Source: Thermostichus lividus PCC 6715 (GTDB taxonomy: Bacteria > Cyanobacteriota > Cyanobacteriia > Thermosynechococcales > Thermosynechococcaceae). From it: a stretch of DNA of 64,000 bases. The notes under the pieces are model-generated. The model saw only the letters and a list, made by a program, of their open reading frames with translations, had not been told where the DNA came from and ran no database searches. Shown here one piece after another: positions 2,363 to 50,866 of this stretch. The stretch lies in NCBI RefSeq assembly GCF_002754935.1, contig NZ_CP018092.1:2170001-2234000 (forward strand), written 5' to 3'. The translations under genes and the position numbers were made by a program. Position 1 is the first letter of the stretch, and each line of letters starts with the position of its first letter.

Positions 2363-2683
2363 ATGACCACCTACTACTACGTTCTTGCGAGTAAGAAATT
2401 TCTCACTGAAGAAGAACCCCTTGAGGAAGTCTTTCGCGAGCGGCAGCGCAACTACCGCGAGCAGGGCAAGGAAATTGACTTTTGGCTAGTGCCCCAGCCC
2501 GCCTTCTTGGAACAGCCCCAGTTTGCTGAGCACAAGAGCCGCTGTCCCCAGCCCGCCGCCGCCATTATTTCCACCAACCAGCAATTTATCCAGTGGTTGA
2601 AGCTGCGGTTGGAGTACGTTTTGATGGGGCAGTTCACCAGTGAAGAGGTGCCTCATCCTCTAGCCTCTTTGGCCGAGGTCTAG
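2363..2683 (+). CDS. ycf54: Ycf54, accessory factor of Mg-protoporphyrin IX monomethyl ester cyclase
   Basis: The 106-residue protein opens MTTYYYVLASKKFL and contains GKEIDFWLVPQPAFLE, CPQPAAAIIST and WLKLRLEYVL, the well-known signature of the Ycf54/DUF2488 family. In Synechocystis this protein is needed for assembly or activity of the oxidative (AcsF/CycI) cyclase that forms the fifth ring of chlorophyll. It has no membrane segment and should act as a soluble or peripheral partner. Length matches the family. The gene converges with the large ATPase-WD40 gene, sharing 4 bases at the two stop codons. Confidence 0.93.
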   Translation: MTTYYYVLASKKFLTEEEPLEEVFRERQRNYREQGKEIDFWLVPQPAFLEQPQFAEHKSRCPQPAAAIISTNQQFIQWLKLRLEYVLMGQFTSEEVPHPLASLAEV

Positions 2684-5600
2684 GGGCACGAGCGAGCCAC
2701 GGCGGGGTTTTGCGTGCGGTAATCTTGGAGCCAGCCACAGGCAGCAGTTATCAACTCTGGCAACGAGGCAAGGGGCGTAACAATGACTTCGTCATCTTCG
2801 GTGCCGACGGCAATGTAGAGATTTCTTTGTCCTTGGATGTCAACGCTGTAGGGAATGGCTCGAATATCGTCGAGTAGGGTAATGAGTTGCCCTGAGCGGT
2901 TCCAGACGCGAACACTGCGATCGGGGGAGGCGGTGGCAATGGTTTGACCATCGGGGCTAAGGCTGAGGCTGACAATGCTGCGCTGGTGAGCACGAAACGA
3001 GCGGCGATCGCCCCCCTGAGACGTCCAGATATACACCGAGCCACTTTCACCCGCTGCCACAAGAGACTGACCATCGGCGCTAAACAGAACGCTTGCCAAC
3101 CACCCCTGTTGGGGATCAAGGCGATAGGCCAAGCGATCGCGACGGATATTCCAGACTTCGATGACGCCAGCTTGCCCAGCACTGGCGAGTAGTGGCCGCT
3201 CTGGATGAAAACTTAAGCTCCAGATTTCCCCTTTGGCTTGCCATTGACGGATGTGCTCTGGCTGTTGCAGGTCTAAAAGATAAATGATGCCCTTAGCGTC
3301 CCCCGCTGCGAAATACCGCTGCTGGGGGTCAAGGGCAATGGCGTACAGCGGGGCTTTGATGGGCAGTGTCCACGTTTGCAGTGAGTCCTCTTTAAGGTTC
3401 CAGAGCGCCAGTTTACCGCCCTTAGTGGCGATCGCCACCCGCTGCTGATCGGCAGTAAATCGCACCTGATTAATTCCCTCCGAATCGAGGACAGGGGTTT
3501 GGGCAAGGAGGTGGCCATCGCGCTGCCAATACTTAACTCGGCCATCTTTGCCACCGGTGATTAGGGTCTGTGCCTGAGGATCTAGGGCTAAAGTCCACAC
3601 ACTGTCCTGTTGCGCCAGCCATTCTACGAGGCGGTTATGGTTGAGGTACCACAGGGTCATCTGACCTCCGCGATCGCTACTCAAGAGGGTGCGGCCACTG
3701 GCATCAAAGCTGACAGTGTTCACCAACCGCTCATGGCCTTGCAACTCACCGAGGAGTTCCCCTGCGGCTGACCATAGGCGTATGCTATTGTCGGTGCTGA
3801 GGGTGAGGAGTTCTTCGGGGTGGGGAGTGGTTCCCACAAAATAAACGGGGGCTGAACTCACCTGCCATTGGTTGATCTGCTGCCCATTGCGGTTCCAAAG
3901 GCGCAGAATCCCGTCTTTTCCGGCACTGGCCAGCTTGCCATTCCCTAGATAGGCTAAACTCGTCTGCGGAACGGGGACATCCGTTTGCACCCGCCATGCC
4001 TGCAATGGCTCTCCCGCCAGCGACCAGATGCGAATCCACCCAGCTTCATCGGCAGTGGCTAGGCGATCGTGACCATAGCTAAGGCTGTTGATCTGTTGAC
4101 TGGGAGTCGCAATGACATCCAGCAACTCGCCAGTGGTGCGCCAGCGAAAAATTTTGCCCGTTGTTGTGGTGGCGGCAATTTCGCGACTGTCGGGGCTGAA
4201 GCGCAAATTACCAATCTCAGCATCAACTGGCGTTAAGCGGTTCTCCAACACGACCTGCTGCTTCTCAATTCGCCAGACAGAGAGTTGCCCCTGACGGTTA
4301 AGCACCGCGAGGCGATCGCCCCCAGGGTTGATGCGCACTAGAGCCACAGAGCCAATATTCAAGGAGTGACTGGCGGTTGCCTCCCCCTGCACCGTCCAAA
4401 ACTGTACGGTGCCGTCTTCACTAATACTGAGCTGTTGGCCATCATGGCTGATCAGGGCGGCCACAAGGGGGGAGCGCTCACTCCGCCACTGATTGCGGGC
4501 TTGAATGCGATCCAACAGGGTATTCAGGACAAACAGAGGGCGCGTGGTGGGGTACTCGCTCAACGGGCGATCGCCCACCAGTGTTTGCAACCGCCGTCCC
4601 GCCTCTATCGCCGCTAATAATGCCGCCAGTTCTTGGGTTTGGAACTGCTCCAAAATATCATCGCTGGTTTGTTCAAGGGCTAAACTCTGCTCTGTAGTTC
4701 GTAGCTCCCCATAGGTTTTAACCAGAATGGTTGCAACTCCAAGGGACATCACCGACACCACCCCCAAGGCCAAAAGGGCACGTTGGGTAAGGCGACTGGC
4801 TTTGCGGCGAGCAGCGTCTAGAATGCGGTTAGCGGCACTGATGGCTTCCTTTTCCTGTCGCTCTAACAGGAGTGTATCTTGAATTGCCTTTTGGTTGGCC
4901 TCTTGGCTAGCGGACAGGTATTGATAATCTAGATCGCTGAGGCTTTTGCCACTTGCCCACAGGAGAGCATCTTGGAGGGCTTGCCCCCGTAGGAGTCGCG
5001 AGCTATCGCTGCCCCCCGATCGCACCCATGCCTGAAAGTCTTCGGTATAGGGGCGCAATTGCTCGAATTGCTGTTCAATCCAGCAGCGATCAAAGACGTG
5101 GGCATAGATCGGGTTAAACACCACCAATTGGCTGTGGCGCTGACACACGAGTCCTGTTAAACACAGGGCACGCTGCTCAGGACTGCCATCAAGGGGTAAC
5201 CCTCCCTCCTCGAGAATCCGTTGATATAGCCCCAGTAACCGGCCAATACGTTGCTCATCTGCCAGCAGACGATTGCGAATGGTTTTCAGGTGCTCGGGTT
5301 CATCGTGGCGCTCCCAGTCTTGCAGTAGATGCTGATGGATAAAGTCTGCCAGCAGTGTGGGTAGGGCACTTGCACTCATAAATGGCGCATGGACTTGCAG
5401 CAGGCGGCAAAGCTTTTGGGTCAAAAAGGGCTGACCGCCCGTCCAAGCCAAAATTTCAGCAAGCAGTTGCTCCGGTGCATCGCTGAGGTGGGCAATTCCC
5501 TTGAGTAGGGGTGTGGCTTCACTGAGGTCAAACCCACTCAGAGCAATCGCTCGGCCAATGTTAAAGGGTGTGCGCTGCTTATCTTGAATGAGCTGATCGG

Positions 5601-6171
5601 GGGTGGCAACGCCAAAAAGAGCAAAGGTCAACCGTCGATACTCGGGGCGATCGGCGCGTTGGTTGTAGCAGGCACGGATCCACGCAAAAAAATCATCCGT
5701 CGAAAAGGGTAAGCTGAGGAGGCTATCAATTTCATCAATGAAAATTACCAACGGCTCGCTGGTGTGGGGCAGCAGCACCTCCTCGACAAACTCACTCAGG
5801 CGTTGAATGGGGGACACCAGTTGGCGATCGCGCCACCAAGAGCGCAGTGAGACCACATCACCTAGGTGGAACCCTTGAATTAAAGCACCCACAAAACTGG
5901 CATACCACTGCTCCGGTTGAATATTTTGACTGCCAATTTTCGTAATATCCAAAGCCGCACAACGGTACCCCATGGTCAGCAGCTGCTGCGTTACCTGTAC
6001 CCGTAAACTCGACTTCCCCATCTGGCGCGAGTTCAGGATATAGCAAAACTCACCGGCCACTAACCCCGCGAGCAGATCCGCATCCGCCTGCCGCTGTACA
6101 TACACCGGAGAGGCCGTGGGCAAACTCCCCCCCACCTGATAACTTGAGGTTGACTCTAGGGGAACCCTCAT
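2680..6171 (-). CDS. STAND-like ATPase (AAA-like) with transmembrane segment and WD40 propeller
   Basis: A 1163-residue protein. Residues about 1-380 form an AAA-like NTPase of the type found in many cyanobacterial multidomain proteins: P-loop NSRQMGKSS (K53) and Walker B LVIFIDEIDS (D146, E147). A coiled linker follows, then one hydrophobic segment (about 465-485). From about residue 560 to the end there are many WD40-type repeats (GRVKYWQ, IRLWSAAG, VRVWNRSG), probably one or two propellers facing the side opposite the ATPase. This layout resembles signalling STAND proteins, where repeats sense and the NTPase switches. The actual ligand and output are unknown. The same ATPase type appears at the C-terminal end of the kinase-TIR protein at 48.3 kb. 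It sits head-to-tail with the rodZ-like gene, 21 bases away. Confidence 0.8.
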   Translation of the reverse strand: MRVPLESTSSYQVGGSLPTASPVYVQRQADADLLAGLVAGEFCYILNSRQMGKSSLRVQVTQQLLTMGYRCAALDITKIGSQNIQPEQWYASFVGALIQGFHLGDVVSLRSWWRDRQLVSPIQRLSEFVEEVLLPHTSEPLVIFIDEIDSLLSLPFSTDDFFAWIRACYNQRADRPEYRRLTFALFGVATPDQLIQDKQRTPFNIGRAIALSGFDLSEATPLLKGIAHLSDAPEQLLAEILAWTGGQPFLTQKLCRLLQVHAPFMSASALPTLLADFIHQHLLQDWERHDEPEHLKTIRNRLLADEQRIGRLLGLYQRILEEGGLPLDGSPEQRALCLTGLVCQRHSQLVVFNPIYAHVFDRCWIEQQFEQLRPYTEDFQAWVRSGGSDSSRLLRGQALQDALLWASGKSLSDLDYQYLSASQEANQKAIQDTLLLERQEKEAISAANRILDAARRKASRLTQRALLALGVVSVMSLGVATILVKTYGELRTTEQSLALEQTSDDILEQFQTQELAALLAAIEAGRRLQTLVGDRPLSEYPTTRPLFVLNTLLDRIQARNQWRSERSPLVAALISHDGQQLSISEDGTVQFWTVQGEATASHSLNIGSVALVRINPGGDRLAVLNRQGQLSVWRIEKQQVVLENRLTPVDAEIGNLRFSPDSREIAATTTTGKIFRWRTTGELLDVIATPSQQINSLSYGHDRLATADEAGWIRIWSLAGEPLQAWRVQTDVPVPQTSLAYLGNGKLASAGKDGILRLWNRNGQQINQWQVSSAPVYFVGTTPHPEELLTLSTDNSIRLWSAAGELLGELQGHERLVNTVSFDASGRTLLSSDRGGQMTLWYLNHNRLVEWLAQQDSVWTLALDPQAQTLITGGKDGRVKYWQRDGHLLAQTPVLDSEGINQVRFTADQQRVAIATKGGKLALWNLKEDSLQTWTLPIKAPLYAIALDPQQRYFAAGDAKGIIYLLDLQQPEHIRQWQAKGEIWSLSFHPERPLLASAGQAGVIEVWNIRRDRLAYRLDPQQGWLASVLFSADGQSLVAAGESGSVYIWTSQGGDRRSFRAHQRSIVSLSLSPDGQTIATASPDRSVRVWNRSGQLITLLDDIRAIPYSVDIQGQRNLYIAVGTEDDEVIVTPLASLPELITAACGWLQDYRTQNPAVARSCP

Positions 6172-6192: not shown

Positions 6193-7047
6193 CTAATTAG
6201 GCACTGACGCATCAGGAATCGTCGAGGTTGCGGTACTGCCAGGGGTCGCTTGTCCTACCACATATTCTTTTTCAGTGACTTCCCCCACCGCTCCCATAGG
6301 GGTCGCTGGGCCGTTATTGACACTCACCTTCACATCCCCCGCGTTGCCCGTGCGGACAATCAATCGTTCCTTGGCCTGCCAACTGCGCTCGGTGCCCGCC
6401 TCAAGAATCCCCGTATACACCACCTTCCCATCCGCTTCAACTTCTAGCCAAGAGGCTCCCGACAGTGACAGCTTCACATCAACGACGTCACTACTGGGGG
6501 TTGGGGCTAGACTGGGGTCAGTGGCCATGACGGCATTGGGGCTGGCCGTGGGGTCAGGCGAGGATGTCGTCTGATGGGCTGGGCTAGGACTTGGATTCGT
6601 TGCTTCAGGGGTAGGCACTGGGCGAACATCCGTAATACTTTGAGGTTGGGGGCGAAACAGATAGGCTAACCCCGCCACTGCTGCCACCACCACAGCAAAG
6701 TAGGTGAGATACAGATGAATGGGACGCAGTTGAAAACCAATGCCAGTGACACCCCTTGTGGGCTTATCAATCGGTCTTGCAGATTCGGCCATCGTCGGAA
6801 AATGCGCTGCTAAACTTTTGCCATCTAGACCCATCGCATCAGCAAAGCGGCGAATAAATCCTTGGGTGTAGATAGCCTCAGGCAATTCATCTAAGGCACC
6901 TTTCTCAATGGCGGCCAGAATGGACTGGCGCACAAGGGTTTTAGCGGCCAAGTCCTCGAGGCTGAGGCCAAGCTCTAACCGTTTTTCATGCAGAAAGGTG
7001 CCAATTTCTGTAAGTTTTTCTGCCTGTTGAGCGGTCAAATCGGGCAT
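6193..7047 (-). CDS. RodZ-like helix-turn-helix membrane protein
   Basis: 284 residues. The N-terminal 80 residues are an Xre-type helix-turn-helix (IGTFLHEKRLELGLSLEDLA ... YTQGFIRRFADAMGLD), typical of RodZ. A single membrane span lies at about 111-131, then a Pro/Ser/Thr-rich linker, then a C-terminal beta domain of the DUF4115 kind (SLSGASWLEVEADGKVVYTG). RodZ links MreB to the elongation machinery. Here the function is inferred from architecture only, and no mre gene is visible. The ATG at 7047 is followed directly by the conserved HTH, which supports the start. It is probably co-transcribed with the downstream ATPase-WD40 gene. Confidence 0.82.
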   Translation of the reverse strand: MPDLTAQQAEKLTEIGTFLHEKRLELGLSLEDLAAKTLVRQSILAAIEKGALDELPEAIYTQGFIRRFADAMGLDGKSLAAHFPTMAESARPIDKPTRGVTGIGFQLRPIHLYLTYFAVVVAAVAGLAYLFRPQPQSITDVRPVPTPEATNPSPSPAHQTTSSPDPTASPNAVMATDPSLAPTPSSDVVDVKLSLSGASWLEVEADGKVVYTGILEAGTERSWQAKERLIVRTGNAGDVKVSVNNGPATPMGAVGEVTEKEYVVGQATPGSTATSTIPDASVPN

Positions 7048-40727: not shown

Positions 40728-41498
40728 GTGCGGTTGCGTTATTGGGTCTTGGCCAGCCTTTGGGCAGTAGCGGCAATTGTAGGGATGCCGTTGCGCTTAG
40801 GGGCGCAGTCCACAGAGTTTTACCTGAATGCGGTGCAGGTGTTTCTGTCGCCGCGACAACGAACAGTACTGCTTACCCTTACCAATACCGGCGAAACACC
40901 CCTTAACTTTGAAATTAGTCTGCGCAAGTGGCAGCAAACCCCTGATGGCCAAGATGAACTCAGCGAGGCGGATGGCGGTGTTGTGGCTTTTCCCCTGCTG
41001 CTGTCGGTGCCGCCAGGGGAGCAGCGTAGCTTACGGGTGGGGGTGCGGCAGCCGCCCCTTGAGCAGGAGAACACCTATCGGCTGTTGGTGGCAGAGTTGC
41101 CGTCCCCTAATATCCCCAACACCCAAGGGGCACAGTTGCGCATTATTAAAACCTTGAGCTTACCAGTTTTTATTGAGCCAGTCACCCCCCAACGCCAAGG
41201 AGAGTTTGTCAATGCCAGCATCCAGCAAGGGCGGCTGAGTGTGACGCTGCGCAACACAGGCAATGTGCATATTCAAACCCTTGGCATCATAGTACGGGGA
41301 AAGAGTGATCAAGGAGCTGTGATTTTCGAGCAAACGCTAGACTCCGTTTATGTGCTGGCCAATCGTCAACGGGATTTTCGCAACCTTCTCTTACCCCAGA
41401 CAAACTGTGCCCAAGTCCGCCAAGTTACCCTACAAACAGTGGCAACCTCCCCTACAATTACGACAACCATTCCCACCCCTAACGGCATTTGTTCTTAG
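40728..41498 (+). CDS. Periplasmic pilus chaperone (PapD/CsuC-like)
   Basis: 256 residues from GTG 40728, one base after the pilin stop. A signal peptide (VLASLWAVAAIVGMPL) is followed by the two-domain chaperone fold: VQVFLSPRQRTVLLTLTNTGE, SVPPGEQRSLRVGVRQPP, YRLLVAELP and LRIIKTLSLPVFIEP (G1 strand region), then VNASIQQGRLSVTLRNTGN. It would cap pilin subunits and bring them to the usher. Tight spacing and shared orientation mark the operon. Confidence 0.82.
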   Translation: MRLRYWVLASLWAVAAIVGMPLRLGAQSTEFYLNAVQVFLSPRQRTVLLTLTNTGETPLNFEISLRKWQQTPDGQDELSEADGGVVAFPLLLSVPPGEQRSLRVGVRQPPLEQENTYRLLVAELPSPNIPNTQGAQLRIIKTLSLPVFIEPVTPQRQGEFVNASIQQGRLSVTLRNTGNVHIQTLGIIVRGKSDQGAVIFEQTLDSVYVLANRQRDFRNLLLPQTNCAQVRQVTLQTVATSPTITTTIPTPNGICS

Positions 41499-43785
41499 GG
41501 GCAGTGCTCTTCCCCTGTTCTTGGCGACTGTGCCGCCGCTCTACGCTCAAGCTCCCAGTGAAACGTCTGCAATTTATAGCCTTGAAGTTAATCGCGTTGC
41601 CCGTGGCGATGTCATTGTGTTTCTGAGGGGTGACGATGTACTCATCCCATGGCAAGACCTGTTGCAGGCTGGCCTCACGGAAGTGGGTGGCAGCCGTGAA
41701 ATGATTCAGGGCATTGAGCACGTTTCTTTGCAGTCTCTGGCGCCTGCGATTACCTTTGAGCGGGATGATGCGGCGCTGACCTTACGGATTCAGGTGGCTG
41801 CCGATCTGCTGCCCGCCAATGTGATTGACTTTAACCCAGACAATGCGCCACCGGGGATCCGCTACAGCCAACCCCTGAGTGCCTACCTTAACTATGGTGT
41901 CTTTTGGAATAATGTTGAGACCCTCACTGCCGCTGCGGAAATGGCAGTCAGCTTTGGCGGGAATGCCCTCACTTCGACGGTCGGGTTGACTGCGAATGGA
42001 GAGTTGCAGCGGGGTTTAACCGCCCTGATCTTGGATAACCGCCGTCAGTTGACCACGTTGACGCTGGGGGATAGTTTTGTTACTACGGATCTGCTGGGGG
42101 GGGGCGGTTTGTGGGGCGGCATTCGCTGGGAGCGCAACTTTGGCCTGAGTCCCTACCTCATTCGCCAACCCGCCTTTGATATGCAAGGGGAACTGGCAAC
42201 CCCCGGCACTGCCGAAATTTATATCAATGGCTTCCTGACGCGCCGTGTGAGCTTGCTGCCGGGGTCGTTTACGCTTAAGAATTTGCCCTTTAGCGGTGGC
42301 TTTAATCGGGTGCGGGTGGTGGTTACCGACGCAGAGGGTAAGCAGCAGGTGTTTACTCAAGGGTATGTGCAGTCGGCGAGCTTACTGCAACCCGGCCTGT
42401 CTGAGTTTATTGTGGCGGCGGGGGTCGAGCGCCAAGGCTTGGGGGTGGATAACTTTAACTATGATGGCTCAGTGCAGATGGTAGCCGCCTATCGGCAAGG
42501 CGTGCTCAATAACCTGACGCTGGGGGGACGCATTGAGGGGAACGCCCACCTGCTCAATGGCGGGCTGAACTTGAGTACAGCGTTACCCATTGGTACTCTC
42601 GATGTGGCGGCGGCCTTAAGTACCACTCAAGGGAAGCTGGGTACCGCGGTGGCGGCGGCCTATAACTATCCAGGGGCGATCGCCTTCAGTGGTGGGGTAC
42701 GGCTGCGCAGCCCAGATTATGTCACAACTAGCTTACCCCTAGAGGACGATCGCTCGCTGTTGGATGGATTTGTGAGTACAACCTTTAACCTTGGTTCACG
42801 GATTAATATTAGTGGTCAATATTTTTTTAATAATCCTCGCGATCAAGTGATTGGTCAGCAGGCTAGTGTGCTAGCACAGGTGCGCTTGCACCGGAACCTC
42901 AGCCTGTTATTGCAGGGATCGCGGTCTTTTTTTGGCGATCAAGCACCCGTGAACCAATTTAGCGTGACGCTTAACTATTTTCTCAATAATCAGGTGAACC
43001 TCAATACCGGTTGGGTACAGCGGGGTAATCAGGGGGTGCCTTTTGTCAATGTGTCGCGATCGCTCCCCTTGGGGGTGGGCTACGGGTATCAAGGTCAGGT
43101 GTCCCCCGTCAGTGACCAAGGGTTAGCTAGTGGGTTGTTTCAGTACAATACCCCGTGGAGTCGCTATCAAGTTGGCTATTCCCAAGCAGGCAACAGCGGC
43201 CAAACCTCATTAGGGGTAGAAGGCGGGATCGTGGCCATTGGTGGTCAGCTATTTTTCACCCGCCCAGTTCAGGGCAGTTTTGCCCTCGTGCAAGTACCCA
43301 ATGTGGCCGGTGTGCGCACCTACTTGAGTAATCAGGAAATTGGTCGCACTAATCGCCGTGGGCAAATCCTGATTCCCGATCTGCTGCCCTACTATGCCAA
43401 TGACTTACGTATCGAGGATCAAGACGTGCCCCTTGATTTTGCCATTGGCCGAAGTCAACAGTTCATTGCACCGCCATTTCGAGGTGGGGCGATCGCCCGT
43501 TTTGATGTGCGCCTCAATCGGAGCTATGTAGGGCGAGCTATTTTAGTGCGCGGCAGTACTCGCATTGTTCCCAGCTTGGGGCAACTGACGCTCAAAAAAG
43601 ATGACCAAGCGGCGGTTTCGCCCCTGAGTACTAATGGCGAGTTTTACTTTGATACCTTGGAAGCAGGTACCTATGCAGCAGAATTGGCCTATGAGCAGGT
43701 ACAGTGTAATTTTACGGTGACCCTACCCAAGGCTGACGATCTCTTTACCGATGTGGGGGAATTGATATGTCAACTACCCGATTGA
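41350..43785 (+). CDS. Outer-membrane fimbrial usher (CsuD-like); start uncertain
   Basis: The frame runs 811 codons from ATG 41350, but this overlaps the chaperone by 149 bases. The secretion signal (LRGSALPLFLATVPPLYAQA) begins only near residue 48, around 41490. No ATG/GTG is found in the right place; a weak TTG at 41521 is too late for a signal peptide. So the true start is unclear. The rest is a typical usher: plug region PGTAEIYINGFLTRRVSL and FTLKNLPFSGGFNRVRVVVTDAEG, a long beta-barrel with alternating hydrophobic residues, and a C-terminal domain (VGRAILVRGSTRIVPSL, TLEAGTYAAEL). Forms the pore for pilus secretion. Confidence 0.8.
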   Translation: MCWPIVNGIFATFSYPRQTVPKSAKLPYKQWQPPLQLRQPFPPLTAFVLRGSALPLFLATVPPLYAQAPSETSAIYSLEVNRVARGDVIVFLRGDDVLIPWQDLLQAGLTEVGGSREMIQGIEHVSLQSLAPAITFERDDAALTLRIQVAADLLPANVIDFNPDNAPPGIRYSQPLSAYLNYGVFWNNVETLTAAAEMAVSFGGNALTSTVGLTANGELQRGLTALILDNRRQLTTLTLGDSFVTTDLLGGGGLWGGIRWERNFGLSPYLIRQPAFDMQGELATPGTAEIYINGFLTRRVSLLPGSFTLKNLPFSGGFNRVRVVVTDAEGKQQVFTQGYVQSASLLQPGLSEFIVAAGVERQGLGVDNFNYDGSVQMVAAYRQGVLNNLTLGGRIEGNAHLLNGGLNLSTALPIGTLDVAAALSTTQGKLGTAVAAAYNYPGAIAFSGGVRLRSPDYVTTSLPLEDDRSLLDGFVSTTFNLGSRINISGQYFFNNPRDQVIGQQASVLAQVRLHRNLSLLLQGSRSFFGDQAPVNQFSVTLNYFLNNQVNLNTGWVQRGNQGVPFVNVSRSLPLGVGYGYQGQVSPVSDQGLASGLFQYNTPWSRYQVGYSQAGNSGQTSLGVEGGIVAIGGQLFFTRPVQGSFALVQVPNVAGVRTYLSNQEIGRTNRRGQILIPDLLPYYANDLRIEDQDVPLDFAIGRSQQFIAPPFRGGAIARFDVRLNRSYVGRAILVRGSTRIVPSLGQLTLKKDDQAAVSPLSTNGEFYFDTLEAGTYAAELAYEQVQCNFTVTLPKADDLFTDVGELICQLPD

Positions 43786-46825: not shown

Positions 46826-48250
46826 ATGATTACATTGACACTTCTACATCCAGTCCAAGCAACCCCCGTCCAGAGCTGGACGTTTGACAGTGAAGCTGTG
46901 ATCCGCATTGGTCGTGCTGTGGATAATCATGTTGTCCTCTACAGTGCGGTGGTCTCGCGTCACCACGTTGAACTGCGGCGAAATGGGCTGCAGTGGGAGG
47001 TTGTCAACCTAGGTACCAATGGCACGTATTTAGATGGCAAACGGGTACAGCAAGCCCCGCTTTTAGATGGCGGTATCCTGCGGTTGGCTCGATCCGGTCC
47101 CAACATTCAAGTCCGCCTTAGCGCTGACCATCAACCTATGCCCCCCAACGCTAGGATGGCAACGATTCCCGAAACAGCTCGTACTGATGTGGAGAAAGGC
47201 ACCTACTCAGGGGAGGAGGAAGCCGTGGGCACCGACAATGCCGAACCCCCAGGCACCGCAGCAACCGGGATGAGTTATCAGGGCATCATTACCGAAGAGG
47301 ACGACGATGAGGAGGAAAATTTTGCGGTACAGGGGGAGTTACCGGCGCAACTATTAGCTGAGTGGCGCGCCCCTCCCGACTGTAGCCACAGCCGTGCCGA
47401 AGCTGATGATATATTCTGCATTGAGTGTGGCGTGCCCCTCAAGGTATGGAAGACCCTTGGCAACTATCAAATTATTAAAGCCTTAGGCCAAAGTAATACC
47501 TATTTGGGTTGGCGCAATGGCCAGACAGCAGTTGTCAAAGGGCACAGCTTGGCAGCCTCTAAGCGCGAAATTCGTGCCTTTCAGCGGCAAGTGCGGCAGT
47601 TATGCCAGATGAGCCATCCGGTTCTGCCTAAGTTTTGGGAGGGGTTTCAGTACGGCACAGACTCCTACCTTGTCTCGGAAATGGTCTATGGTCATTCCCT
47701 TAAGCAATGGATTAATGATCATGGCGTGATGAATGTTGTTGAAGCGAGCCGTTGGCTGATACCGATTTGCGATCTCTTGACGCTACTTCACCAGCAAGAT
47801 CCCCCCATTTTGCATTTGCATATTCGCCCATCCAACCTCATCCATCCCTATGTCAGCCGTGAGGCTACTAATGTTGTGCTGGTTGGGTGGGGCAAGGCAT
47901 CGGTGCTCACCTCAGAGTCTGGTACCTTTATTGGCACGGTGGGCTATTCTGCCCCTGAGCAGCAAGAAGGGAAACCGGAACCGGCGTCAGATTTGTACGG
48001 CCTTGGTGCCACTATTGTGTACTTGCTCACAGGGAATGAGCCAGACACCTATTTCCGCTGGGGTGCGCGGGAATACCGCCTGTATGCTGAAGATATTCCC
48101 CATCTTGATCCCCTGATGGTGGATTTAATTAACTGTTTGACTCACCCAGACCCGCGGGAACGTTATCCCAATGCCGCAGCTGTGAAGCAGCGGCTAGAGC
48201 AAATTGCGACTATAGCTATGCCTGCTCCGCCAGTTTCCAGTGCCCTATGA
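46826..48250 (+). CDS. FHA - zinc-binding - pseudokinase protein
   Basis: 474 residues. FHA domain 1-100 (RIGRAVDNHVVLYSAVVSRH, NLGTNGTYLDGK). An acidic linker follows (TEEDDDEEENF), then C186SH...FC198IEC201, a small zinc-knuckle-like site, then a protein-kinase fold from about 213. The ATP lysine is kept (VVKG, K238) and the APE motif is present (SAPEQ). But the catalytic loop reads ILHLHIRPSNLI instead of HRDxKxxN (Asp changed to His, Lys to Arg) and DFG reads GWG. So it lacks the catalytic and Mg-binding aspartates and should be a pseudokinase that binds partners. It converges with the kinase-TIR gene, with 33 bases between the stops. Confidence 0.85.
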   Translation: MITLTLLHPVQATPVQSWTFDSEAVIRIGRAVDNHVVLYSAVVSRHHVELRRNGLQWEVVNLGTNGTYLDGKRVQQAPLLDGGILRLARSGPNIQVRLSADHQPMPPNARMATIPETARTDVEKGTYSGEEEAVGTDNAEPPGTAATGMSYQGIITEEDDDEEENFAVQGELPAQLLAEWRAPPDCSHSRAEADDIFCIECGVPLKVWKTLGNYQIIKALGQSNTYLGWRNGQTAVVKGHSLAASKREIRAFQRQVRQLCQMSHPVLPKFWEGFQYGTDSYLVSEMVYGHSLKQWINDHGVMNVVEASRWLIPICDLLTLLHQQDPPILHLHIRPSNLIHPYVSREATNVVLVGWGKASVLTSESGTFIGTVGYSAPEQQEGKPEPASDLYGLGATIVYLLTGNEPDTYFRWGAREYRLYAEDIPHLDPLMVDLINCLTHPDPRERYPNAAAVKQRLEQIATIAMPAPPVSSAL

Positions 48251-48283: not shown

Positions 48284-50866
48284 TTACGCGCGAAGGCGAT
48301 CGCCAAAATAACGGCGATACAGTTCACAGCGAACCTTAGCAAGGCTGCCATTCAAGCTAATTAGCCCCAAACTGTGGAGCTTAAAGCCAGTGGTTGCTTC
48401 GACGGTAACGCCACTCTCGCTACTGACAATATCGGCAAAGGCCGGTACCAGTTCTTGGCGTTGATGGAGGTGCCACCATTGTCCCCGTAAATGATCGCGG
48501 TACAGACCCGTTTCAGAGGCAGCGTTGGCCATGAGTTCCGGCCACGTTACATCGTTACGGGCTAAGTGGTATAGCGTGAGTCGAATTAAGTAGGGATGTC
48601 CCCCTACCAACTGCTGGAGTTCCTTGAGATGGTCTGGGTCTAGGTTAAGGCCGTGCAGACGGCTTAACTCACAAATTTGGTCGTGGTTAAACTCTGGTAA
48701 ATCAATGGCGAGGCCGACGTTAAAGGGGGACTGGTTAATATCGAGGGGGATATACACTTCCGTACCATGGACAACAATTAAGCGCAGATTGCGCCAAATG
48801 TCGCGGTTTTTCCCCTCCTCATGCCATGCCCGTAGTAGCCCGAAGAAATCACTGGCCACGTCAGGGTATTCAAACACGCGATCAACTTCATCCAAGCCCA
48901 ATACTAGGGGGCGACCCGCCATCTGGGTGCCGGGTTTCTGACAGTTGGGCAGTAGATATTCTTCAAAATAAGCTGTGCAGTTATACTTACTGCCAAAAAT
49001 ATCGTCCCAGTAGTCCTTAAGGCGGTTTTCTAGCCCCAGCCGCCGCCCAACTCCGGCACACAGCCAGCGCAGCAGCTTGTCAAGGTCGCTGAAGACGTGG
49101 GCATCAGCCAATTGAAAGCTCAACGGGACGGTGCCATAGCCCTCTTGGGTGGCTCGATACATCAGCCGTGCCATCAAGGAGGTTTTGCCCATTTGCCGGG
49201 GGGCTTTAATGCGAATGAGGGAACCGGGTTGTAGGAGGGTTTCGCGGCAGCGCTGCTCGATGGGAGGGCGCTCGATATAAAAGGCAGAGGCTACTTCTAC
49301 TTGCCCTTCTGGTAGTTCAGGTTCAGCCACCGGCACAGGGGCACCATCTCCCACTAGGGTGCCAGTTTGCCCTTGCTCTACAGCGGTTTCGTGAATCCCA
49401 TCACTGGTGGGCAGCACTGGATCAGCAGTGGCATTCACGAGGTCAAGGACTTCTTGAACTAGGCTCGCAGTGTCTGCTGGCGATCGCCAAAAGCGTTGCT
49501 GCAACCGATGCAAGTAGCCGCGTAATTCGTAGTTTAGGGGTAGGTCTAGGGGAAAGTTGACCCGCACCGGCAGGATGAACGGACGGCGATCGCTGCGCTG
49601 AGATTGCAGTTGCTTAACACTACGGACTTCTTCAAGTACCATCTCACTCTGGGCGGCGGCTTGGGAGAGAAGCAGTAAAAAGAAATCGCACTGCTTCAGA
49701 GCGTGATCAATGCGCTCTGCCCATCCTTCTCCCATGCGGATACTTTGGCTGGCCATAAAGGGATGATGCCCTGCGTTTTGGAGCGCTTCTTGCAGCGCCG
49801 TGGCCAGTTGCAGATCGGTGCCATCGCTGGAATGGCTGATAAATACGTGTCGTCCCCGAGGCGGAATTGCAGCGGTAGGAGCGGGGGTGCTGGGTAAGGG
49901 TTGGGGGGGTGGGGTGGTTGAGGCGATCGCAGTACTACTCGTTGAAGGAGCCGCGTTGCTAACCGGCGATCGCCAGAGGTCTTGAATCGGGGTTTTCAGA
50001 AAGGAGCCAAGGCGCTGCCAGAGGGATTTGGGAAGTTCCACCTGCTGCAAGCTTGCCAGTGCCTCTGCCGCTGTGGCAAAGCGTTCGTAAGGCGACGGAT
50101 GAATCAGTTTATTGACAAACTGGACGAGGCGATCGTTGATCGGATGGACTGGCTCCCAATGCCAGCAACCGTAGGGGTCTTGGGTGAGCTGCAAGGGATT
50201 TAACCCCGTCAACGCCTGTACAGCAATCATGCCCAAGGCGTAGAGGTCACTGGCGGGGCGAGGTCGCCCTTGGGCCTGCTCAGGTGCCATGTAGCCCGGT
50301 GTGCCAATGGCGATCGTTTGGGCGGTGGCGTCCCCCACCAAGGTGCCACCCCCAATAGAAACCCCCATTTCCTTGACCGCGCCAAAATCAATCAGGACAA
50401 GGCGATAATCCGATTGCCGCCGGATCAGGTTATCGGGCTTAATGTCGCGGTGAATCACGCCGCACTGGTGCACAAAGGCCAGAATTCCCAAAGCATCTTG
50501 AAGAAAGTAGAGGACTTCCGCCTCCGACCACGTGGCACCGGGTACGAGTTGCTGGCGCAAGACCTGTCCTTCAATAAAGTCTTGGACAAGGTAAAATTCA
50601 CTGTCTTCCTCAAAGTAGGCTAACAGGCGGGGAATTTGATCATGACTGCCGAGCCGTTCAAGGGTTTGCGCCTCCCGCTGAAAAAGAGAGCGTGCCAAGG
50701 GTAAAAAACTAGGATCGGTGCGTGCGGGTCGCAGATACTTGACGACGCATTTTGCCCGCACAGGACGGTGAGTGTCCTCCGCTAAGAAAGTTTGGCCAAA
50801 GTTCCCCGCTCCCAAGACGCGAATCAGTTTGTAACGACTGCCAAGGGTTTTACCAATCATGACCAC
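48284..50866 (-). CDS. Ser/Thr kinase - TIR - STAND-like ATPase fusion
   Basis: 860 residues. Kinase domain 10-280 with all key parts: K43, HRDIKPDN (139-146), DFG (160-162), GTPGYMAPEQ. A Pro/Ser/Thr-rich linker (300-336) follows. TIR domain about 338-460: GRHVFISHSSDGTDLQL, DFFLLLLSQAAAQSEMVLEE with E413 at the position of the NAD-cleaving glutamate. From about 520 an AAA-like NTPase: P-loop IKAPRQMGKTSL (K561), Walker B LVLGLDEVD, VHGTEVYIPL and GGHPYLIRLTLYHL. TIR plus STAND-like ATPase is typical of bacterial immune sensors; the kinase adds phosphorylation input. Function in this organism is not known. ATG at 50866 or 50860. Confidence 0.88.
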   Translation of the reverse strand: MVMIGKTLGSRYKLIRVLGAGNFGQTFLAEDTHRPVRAKCVVKYLRPARTDPSFLPLARSLFQREAQTLERLGSHDQIPRLLAYFEEDSEFYLVQDFIEGQVLRQQLVPGATWSEAEVLYFLQDALGILAFVHQCGVIHRDIKPDNLIRRQSDYRLVLIDFGAVKEMGVSIGGGTLVGDATAQTIAIGTPGYMAPEQAQGRPRPASDLYALGMIAVQALTGLNPLQLTQDPYGCWHWEPVHPINDRLVQFVNKLIHPSPYERFATAAEALASLQQVELPKSLWQRLGSFLKTPIQDLWRSPVSNAAPSTSSTAIASTTPPPQPLPSTPAPTAAIPPRGRHVFISHSSDGTDLQLATALQEALQNAGHHPFMASQSIRMGEGWAERIDHALKQCDFFLLLLSQAAAQSEMVLEEVRSVKQLQSQRSDRRPFILPVRVNFPLDLPLNYELRGYLHRLQQRFWRSPADTASLVQEVLDLVNATADPVLPTSDGIHETAVEQGQTGTLVGDGAPVPVAEPELPEGQVEVASAFYIERPPIEQRCRETLLQPGSLIRIKAPRQMGKTSLMARLMYRATQEGYGTVPLSFQLADAHVFSDLDKLLRWLCAGVGRRLGLENRLKDYWDDIFGSKYNCTAYFEEYLLPNCQKPGTQMAGRPLVLGLDEVDRVFEYPDVASDFFGLLRAWHEEGKNRDIWRNLRLIVVHGTEVYIPLDINQSPFNVGLAIDLPEFNHDQICELSRLHGLNLDPDHLKELQQLVGGHPYLIRLTLYHLARNDVTWPELMANAASETGLYRDHLRGQWWHLHQRQELVPAFADIVSSESGVTVEATTGFKLHSLGLISLNGSLAKVRCELYRRYFGDRLRA

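What the first reader, a model, noticed from the sequence alone, without database searches (positions are those of the whole stretch)
48284..50866. Kinase-TIR-STAND-like ATPase fusion, candidate immune or stress sensor
One polypeptide carries an intact Ser/Thr kinase, a TIR domain with a glutamate at the NADase position (E413) and a C-terminal AAA-like NTPase. TIR effectors joined to STAND-type ATPases act in bacterial immunity by NAD depletion; adding a kinase at the N-terminus and the nearby FHA proteins suggests phospho-controlled triggering. Whether it defends against phage is unknown.
Basis: partly seen in the sequence, partly recalled or inferred. Interest (0 to 1): 0.72.

Follow-up and report, generated by a model that had tools for sequence, protein, structure and literature searches.

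The report
Effector half of split immune-like pair
A heat-loving cyanobacterium makes a protein that joins a kinase, a TIR domain and an apoptosis-type ATPase but carries no sensor; comparison with other genomes points to a second gene nearby, an ATPase with a WD40 sensor, as its partner, so the two look like the halves of one split immune- or stress-signalling machine.

Summary
In detail: ORF 48284-50866 (-) is one 860-aa protein with an intact Ser/Thr kinase, a TIR domain with Glu413 and a C-terminal AAA_35 domain. The modelled AAA_35 part has a STAND fold (Z 15-18 to CED-4, Apaf-1, TIR-NLRs); the TIR resembles SPARTA and plant TIRs.

In relatives the TIR-AAA_35 protein ("A") is followed on the same strand by a second AAA_35 protein ("B") with a WD40, GAF, histidine-kinase or other C-terminus: 72 of 108 non-redundant A genes, median gap 71 bp. 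B occurs in 104 of 110 sampled genomes with A-type AAA_35 and in 0 of 276 without. This genome has one A and one B; B is ORF 2680-6171 (-), 42 kb away: AAA_35, a TM helix, WD40 propellers. It groups with the partners of other kinase-type A proteins. A's N-terminal module is swapped: kinase, trypsin-like, CHAT, caspase, cyclase, short modules.

Best reading: a split two-protein STAND signalling or immune system. The FHA link is not conserved. Defence is plausible, unproven.

The parts
48284..50866 (-). Gene A: kinase-TIR-AAA_35 protein, 860 aa
50057..50833 (-). Ser/Thr kinase domain of A (aa 12-270), the swappable N-terminal module
   Evidence: Pfam; motifs; swapping
49523..49846 (-). TIR domain of A (aa 341-448)
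   Evidence: Pfam; model; folds
49628..49630 (-). Codon of Glu413, aligned with the glutamate of Cat1, 7uxr and RUN1
48302..49315 (-). AAA_35 domain of A (aa 518-855), STAND-type ATPase with winged helix; the protein ends here, no sensor
   Evidence: Pfam; model; VIA-align
2680..6171 (-). Gene B, proposed partner: AAA_35 - TM helix - WD40, 1163 aa
5062..6129 (-). AAA_35 (STAND) part of B (about aa 15-370)
   Evidence: Pfam; tree
4720..4776 (-). Hydrophobic helix of B (aa 466-484), present in 20 of 21 kinase-type B sequences (the 21st is a 506-aa fragment)
   Evidence: Kyte-Doolittle scan
2764..4506 (-). WD40 region of B (about aa 556-1136), modelled as beta-propellers

Best explanation
The ORF is the effector half (A) of a split, two-protein STAND system; the sensor half (B) is ORF 2680-6171. 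In A a STAND switch (AAA_35) carries a TIR domain and a swappable N-terminal module, here a Ser/Thr kinase. In B a second STAND switch carries a membrane helix and WD40 propellers. Proposed mechanism: a ligand met by the WD40 part of B switches its ATPase; B and A assemble through their related ATPase domains into a mixed oligomer; this brings TIR domains together, which act on NAD+ (cleavage or a signal nucleotide), and the clustered kinases phosphorylate each other or targets. Shown here: domain anatomy, fold, conserved motifs, co-occurrence, frequent operon linkage elsewhere, co-divergence of A and B, module swapping. Inferred: physical A-B complex, extracytoplasmic WD40, NADase activity, kinase targets, immune role.
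For: Linkage: 72 of 108 non-redundant A genes (window excluded) have B downstream on the same strand within 3 kb, 54 within 350 bp, 14 abutting or overlapping; 30 have none, 6 lie at contig ends. Kinase-type A genes with B next door exist in Acaryochloris (L098, L099, L104), Oscillatoria princeps (L103) and G015 (L072), and B adjoins the broken kinase-A of G029. Co-occurrence: the same 31 of 39 close genomes have both AAA_35 types and the same 8 have neither; in 386 phylum genomes A 110, B 104, both 104. One A and one B in this genome. B tree: window B lies in a 96-supported clade of 20 that holds only B genes of genomes with a kinase-A, 5 linked and 15 unlinked. A and B distances correlate: r 0.75 over 70 linked pairs, 0 of 2000 permutations as high, also when partners are permuted within N-module class; r 0.95 over 17 kinase pairs of which 13 are unlinked. 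Fold. E413 kept in 49 of 49 members with an enzymatic N-module. The pair also stands, overlapping, on an Abditibacteriota plasmid and on one IMG/VR contig.
Against: In Thermosynechococcus A and B are 42 kb or more apart and not co-transcribed. 30 of 108 A genes have no B within the fetched flank, among them most kinase-type ones (11 of 17). 6 genomes have A-type AAA_35 without detected B. In G003 of the same genus B is broken while A is intact. The aromatic residue before the TIR glutamate is Met; E413 is absent in 25 of 109 members; the first half of the TIR is degenerate in some kinase forms (L071, L072). The E413-enzymatic association rests on too few independent pairs to test (2). Correlated trees can reflect shared species history, which was not corrected for. 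No activity was measured.
Confidence: 0.65

Rival explanations
1. A housekeeping envelope- or stress-signalling system rather than immunity: B, anchored in the membrane behind the cell-shape gene rodZ, reads an envelope signal and the kinase of A relays it; the TIR is a scaffold.
For: A and B are core in the genus: A in 11 of 11 genomes, B in 11 of 11 with one broken. Low dN/dS in every domain. In the window and 8 of 10 other Thermosynechococcus genomes, plus G012, a RodZ-like gene lies directly before B; G010 lacks it there and G009 is cut by a contig end. The neighbours of A that could be named are ordinary (ilvE-type transaminase; TrmFO; MurQ).
Against: Patchy in the phylum, plasmid copies in 36 records including a non-cyanobacterial one, repeated swapping of N-modules typical of conflict systems, faster evolution of the WD40 sensor (dN/dS 0.12 against 0.06), TIR glutamate kept in all 18 kinase members.
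Confidence: 0.3
2. A self-contained single-protein sensor-effector: the kinase or ATPase of A senses the trigger itself and no partner is needed.
For: A stands without B nearby in 30 of 108 loci and stays intact where B is broken in G003.
Against: No sensor domain after the winged helix; B present in 104 of 110 genomes with A-type AAA_35 and in none of 276 without.
Confidence: 0.15
3. The TIR is not an NADase here but an assembly domain; the swappable N-module (kinase, protease, CHAT, caspase, cyclase) is the true effector.
For: TIR constant while the N-module is swapped 24 times on the core tree; E413 replaced in 25 of 109 members; Met in place of the aromatic residue before it.
Against: E413 kept in 49 of 49 members with an enzymatic N-module and in 8 of 9 with none; nearest solved TIRs by profile include Cat1 and the NAD+ hydrolase AbTIR, and by fold SPARTA TIRs.
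Confidence: 0.35

Closest known systems
TIR-type NLRs and apoptosome STANDs (RPP1, Roq1, WRR4A; CED-4, Apaf-1, Dark)
   Same: TIR followed by NBD-winged-helix (A) and STAND followed by WD40 propellers (B); Z 15-18 for the ATPase part, Z 38.6 for the Apaf-1 propeller
   Different: Effector and sensor are on two polypeptides, each with its own ATPase; an extra kinase before the TIR; a membrane helix in B
MNS-clade STANDs (Npun2340/2341 family of Leipe et al. 2004, as named in PMC8195603)
   Same: Cyanobacterial STANDs whose N-terminal slot holds TIR, caspase, trypsin, kinase or FHA in that paper's passages; possibly the same ATPase family
   Different: Identity of AAA_35 with that family could not be tested; the passages speak of single STAND-FGS proteins, not of a TIR-AAA_35/AAA_35 pair
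Two-gene operon of two STAND proteins with GT4 or HEPN effectors (PMC8195603)
   Same: Two STAND proteins in one operon, proposed to form a hetero-multimer, effector on one of them
   Different: There one STAND is inactive and both are CR-ATPase/DAP3-like; here both keep the nucleotide-binding motifs in nearly all members and the effector protein carries a TIR plus a swappable module
SPARTA, AbTIR, Cat1 TIR NADases
   Same: TIR fold (Z 16.6 to SPARTA) and the glutamate position
   Different: Fused to kinase and STAND; Met for the aromatic residue before the glutamate; activity untested
Antiviral STANDs (Avs)
   Same: STAND ATPase fold; Avs3 and Avs4 are among the Foldseek matches
   Different: No C-terminal repeat sensor on the effector protein; no PADLOC model matches either AAA_35 domain at E 1e-5

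Membership tests
STAND NTPases | NBD plus helical and winged-helix domains | tested here: met
   AF2 model pLDDT 87.1, pTM 0.81; 287-306 residues over model 178-531 align to 2qen, 2fna, CED-4, NLRs at Z 17-19.5
STAND NTPases | Walker A and Walker B motifs | tested here: met
   A: GK[ST] P-loop pattern in 109 of 109, Asp-Glu Walker B in 104 of 109; B: P-loop pattern in 87 of 88, Walker B pattern in 80 of 88. The first P-loop glycine is replaced in both
STAND NTPases | C-terminal sensor/repeat region in the same polypeptide | tested here: not met
   A ends after the winged helix; the WD40 region is on B
TIR NADases | TIR fold | tested here: met
   Z 16.6, 136 residues, 2.4 A to SPARTA TIR; 14.9 to RUN1
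TIR NADases | catalytic-position glutamate | tested here: met
   E413 aligns with the glutamate of Cat1, 7uxr, RUN1; kept in 18 of 18 kinase members
TIR NADases | aromatic residue four before the glutamate | tested here: not met
   Met409; Trp in the aligned solved TIRs. Not claimed as strictly required (recall)
TIR NADases | NAD+ cleavage | not testable with these tools
   needs an assay
Bacterial Ser/Thr kinases | Lys, HRD, DFG motifs | tested here: met
   18 of 18
PD-T4-6 defence kinase | specific match to PADLOC models | tested here: inconclusive
   E 1.7e-87, but three paralogous kinases of the same genome match the same models as well or better
Avs antiviral STANDs | large C-terminal repeat sensor on the effector STAND | tested here: not met
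Two-STAND GT4/HEPN operon (PMC8195603) | one of the two STANDs inactive | tested here: not met
   motifs kept in both
MoxR-vWA ternary (VMAP, iSTAND) systems | MoxR and vWA partners | not tested
   no systematic scan for these genes was made

The most novel reading that the evidence does not exclude
A prokaryotic split resistosome/apoptosome: TIR effector and WD40 sensor sit on two distinct STAND proteins that must co-assemble, with plug-in enzymes (kinase, protease, caspase, cyclase) before the TIR on one subunit and plug-in sensors (WD40, GAF, histidine kinase, FHA) on the other, and with a membrane-anchored sensor in the kinase version.
Probability: 0.45. Interest if true: 0.82.

Novelty: new variant of a known kind. 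Interest (0 to 1): 0.63.

Why it matters
If the pair is real, bacteria build Apaf-1/TIR-NLR-like machines from two separately encoded ATPase subunits, so sensor and effector repertoires can be mixed. It gives AAA_35 proteins, annotated only as 'AAA-like domain-containing' in most plasmid records seen, a testable role, and a thermophile with exactly one A and one B is a clean system for structure and genetics.

Tried and rejected
FHA-phospho link: rejected; FHA gene beside A in 1 of 16 other kinase-A loci.

PADLOC kinase match (PD-T4-6): not informative, since paralogous kinases match equally well.

Defence-island test: PADLOC hits at E 1e-20 among 100 of 168 near ORFs and all 100 far ORFs of 36 loci; near 39 families (HEC-01A 2 proteins, HEC-01B 2, AriA 2, AbiLi 2, Cas6 1, Csx1 1, mad3 3, Cas12f/TnpB-like 1), far 8 families (mad3 4, Cas12f 1, HEAT 1). 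Only 25 of the 39 families are shown and one protein can hit many models, so this is at most a weak lean.

E413 against N-module type: 49 of 49 in enzymatic types, 24 of 46 in the five short-module clusters, 3 of 5 others, 8 of 9 with none. Only 2 phylogenetically independent pairs, so no test is possible.

Phage and virus collections: A in INPHARED phages none; A1 scan of IMG/VR none, but the B scan found one contig that does hold both genes; its other ORFs tested have no Pfam match, so its viral nature is unconfirmed.

Literature: PF14516 in 0 papers; Npun2340 in one; further searches searches gave no description of this pair in their listings. Subscription papers (Leipe 2004) are not held. 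Passages only were seen of PMC7159879, PMC10907252, PMC8195603, PMC2176072 and PMC9679502.

Limits: N-module classes were assigned by BLAST clustering; Pfam was run on representatives only, and the short-module clusters HTHa and HTHq have no Pfam hit in their representatives (L090, L081). 'None' and open-ended ORFs may be truncated. The 80 named loci are the best of 564 relatives, hence biased towards close kin. The first 3-5 candidates per genome were scored in the phylum searches.

Full report
1. The observation. The 860-aa ORF on the minus strand at 48284-50866 is real. Pfam gives Pkinase 12-270, TIR_2 341-448 and AAA_35 518-855. The window lies in a closed 2.66-Mb genome. The genus is Thermosynechococcus: a contig of same-genus genome G008 has the same length (16,439 bases) and the same A-gene coordinates as the named locus L100, Thermosynechococcus sp. 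M98_K2018_005. Full-length A is found in 10 of 10 other genomes of the genus and in 5 of 28 further relatives; one more (G029) holds a copy broken by frame changes. Within the genus median dN/dS is 0.061 (kinase), 0.057 (TIR) and 0.054 (AAA_35) against 0.31-0.33 in the linkers.

2. Fold and active sites. The AlphaFold2 model of TIR-AAA_35 is confident (pLDDT 87.1, pTM 0.81). VIA-align matches the ATPase part, winged helix included, to STAND proteins: 2qen Z 19.5, 2fna 18.7, CED-4 17.9, WRR4A 17.1, Roq1 16.4, Dark 16.0, Apaf-1 15.3. The TIR matches SPARTA TIR-APAZ (Z 16.6, 136 residues, 2.4 A) and RUN1 (14.9). By profile, the nearest solved TIRs include Cat1, 7uxr, RUN1, Roq1 and AbTIR, and E413 falls on their glutamate in the alignments shown. 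Against NADase activity: Met409 replaces the Trp that stands four residues before the glutamate. The kinase motifs are intact in 18 of 18 kinase-type members. The chain ends directly after the winged helix, so A has no C-terminal sensor.

3. A modular family. In 120 loci from related genomes (40 from unnamed G genomes, 80 named), 120 TIR-AAA_35 genes were found; with the window they reduce to 109 at under 95% identity. The TIR-AAA_35 core is constant while the N-terminal module differs: Ser/Thr kinase 18, CHAT 10, class III nucleotidyl cyclase 10, trypsin-like peptidase 9, caspase 2, short modules (HTH-like or without Pfam match) in five clusters 46, single cases 5, none 9 (Pfam of representatives). 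On a tree of the ATPase part alone the module label changes 24 times (minimum 11, shuffled mean 74); CHAT needs 7 changes and trypsin 6, of which starred branches force 5 and 3; the kinase form needs one. The glutamate at position 413 is present in 84 of 109: 49 of 49 with an enzymatic module, 24 of 46 with a short module, 3 of 5 single cases, 8 of 9 without a module. Phylogeny leaves only two independent pairs, so this association is descriptive.

4. The partner. Directly downstream of many A genes lies a second gene, B, whose product begins with its own AAA_35 domain. Of 108 non-redundant A genes (window excluded), 72 have B on the same strand within 3 kb, 54 within 350 bp (median gap of the 72: 71 bp; 14 abut or overlap), 30 have none and 6 stand at contig ends. 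The C-terminus of B varies: WD40 (window, L073, L077, L093, L098, L103, L185, L186), GAF (L142), histidine kinase (L080), FHA (L074, where B is divergent rather than downstream), no Pfam match (L092). Using the A-type and B-type ATPase domains as queries, the same 31 of 39 close genomes have both and the same 8 have neither. In 386 genomes of the phylum, A-type occurs in 110 and B-type in 104, all of them with A; six have A only (G060, G164, G206, G241, G261, G411). The A query is the ATPase domain and so also finds A proteins without a TIR.

5. The partner in this window. The genome has one A-type and one B-type AAA_35 gene at the thresholds used. B is ORF 2680-6171 (-): AAA_35, a hydrophobic helix at 466-484 and WD40 repeats. 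Its model (pLDDT 81.7, pTM 0.50) shows propellers that match 5yzv at Z 41.2 and Apaf-1 at Z 38.6; that there are two propellers is inferred from about 580 residues of blades. On the B tree, window B lies in a 96-supported clade of 20 made only of B genes from genomes with a kinase-A: 5 linked (L072, L073, L098, L099, L104) and 15 unlinked; the linked B of Oscillatoria princeps (L103) lies just outside. A and B distances correlate over 70 linked pairs (r 0.75; 0 of 2000 permutations, also within N-module class, where the permuted mean is 0.43 and the maximum 0.61) and over 17 kinase pairs, 13 of them unlinked (r 0.95). Species history was not subtracted. The simplest account is an ancestral A-B operon that was separated in the Thermosynechococcus line.

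6. Context. Within the genus the neighbours of A differ between lineages: the window and G010 share the FHA gene; in nine others the flanking ORFs are of matching sizes, with an ilvE-type transaminase next door in the BP-1-sized genome. A RodZ-like gene lies directly before B in the window, in 8 of 10 other genus members and in G012; G010 lacks it there and G009 is cut by the contig end. So in this genus the pair is stable and resident, which favours a standing function. Elsewhere it behaves like a mobile module: 36 plasmid records hold a match (7 of them over 80% or more of TIR-AAA_35), among them an Abditibacteriota plasmid with TIR-AAA_35 and B overlapping by 8 bp between two xerC genes, and one IMG/VR contig holds the overlapping pair. 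PADLOC hits near the loci show only a weak lean to defence genes.

7. Mechanism. Shown: anatomy, folds (predicted), conserved motifs, linkage, co-occurrence, co-divergence. Inferred: B's WD40 part binds a ligand, perhaps outside the cytoplasm given the helix between ATPase and WD40; B switches and nucleates A; TIR domains pair up and act on NAD+; the kinases are clustered and activated. The WD40 part evolves about twice as fast as the ATPase of B (dN/dS 0.12 against 0.06), as expected of a recognition surface but also of many surface domains. Against a strict partnership: in G003 B is broken while A is intact.

8. Novelty. Single STANDs with swapped N-terminal effectors, and a two-gene operon of two STANDs (one inactive, GT4/HEPN effectors), are described in PMC8195603 (passages). 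I found no description of the TIR-AAA_35/AAA_35 pair in the searches listed, and the 2007 survey of cyanobacterial Ser/Thr kinases lists 14 accessory domains without the word TIR in its main text. AAA_35 may be the 'Npun2340/2341 family' of Leipe et al. 2004, which I could not test. I therefore rate it a new variant of a known kind.

Noticed in passing
window 46826-48250 (+): FHA domain plus zinc-ribbon-like stretch plus a kinase domain whose HRD and DFG motifs look lost (HLH and GWG read in the sequence), i.e. a probable pseudokinase with FHA.
   Followed up: partly
window 6193-7047 (-): RodZ-like gene (HTH_25, RodZ_C) 21 bp before gene B; the order is kept in 8 of 10 other genus members and in G012.
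   Followed up: yes
L182 (G003): Gene B is broken by in-frame stops and a frame change while gene A of the same genome is intact.
   Followed up: partly
L073 5185-11379 (G029): Kinase-TIR-AAA_35 broken by frame changes, directly next to an intact B gene; sequencing error in a draft is possible.
   Followed up: partly
L192 5893-10279: Abditibacteriota plasmid pIAD-21 carries TIR-AAA_35 and B overlapping by 8 bp, with xerC genes on both sides.
   Followed up: yes
L193 4506-8086: IMG/VR contig with the overlapping TIR-AAA_35 and AAA_35-TPR pair; no Pfam match in the five other ORFs tested.
   Followed up: partly
window 41350-43785 (+): Outer-membrane usher-like protein (Pfam Usher, 2.3e-29), unexpected in a cyanobacterium.
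   Followed up: no
L096 6362-8371: A B-type protein in which BLAST finds two AAA_35-like stretches in one chain.
   Followed up: no
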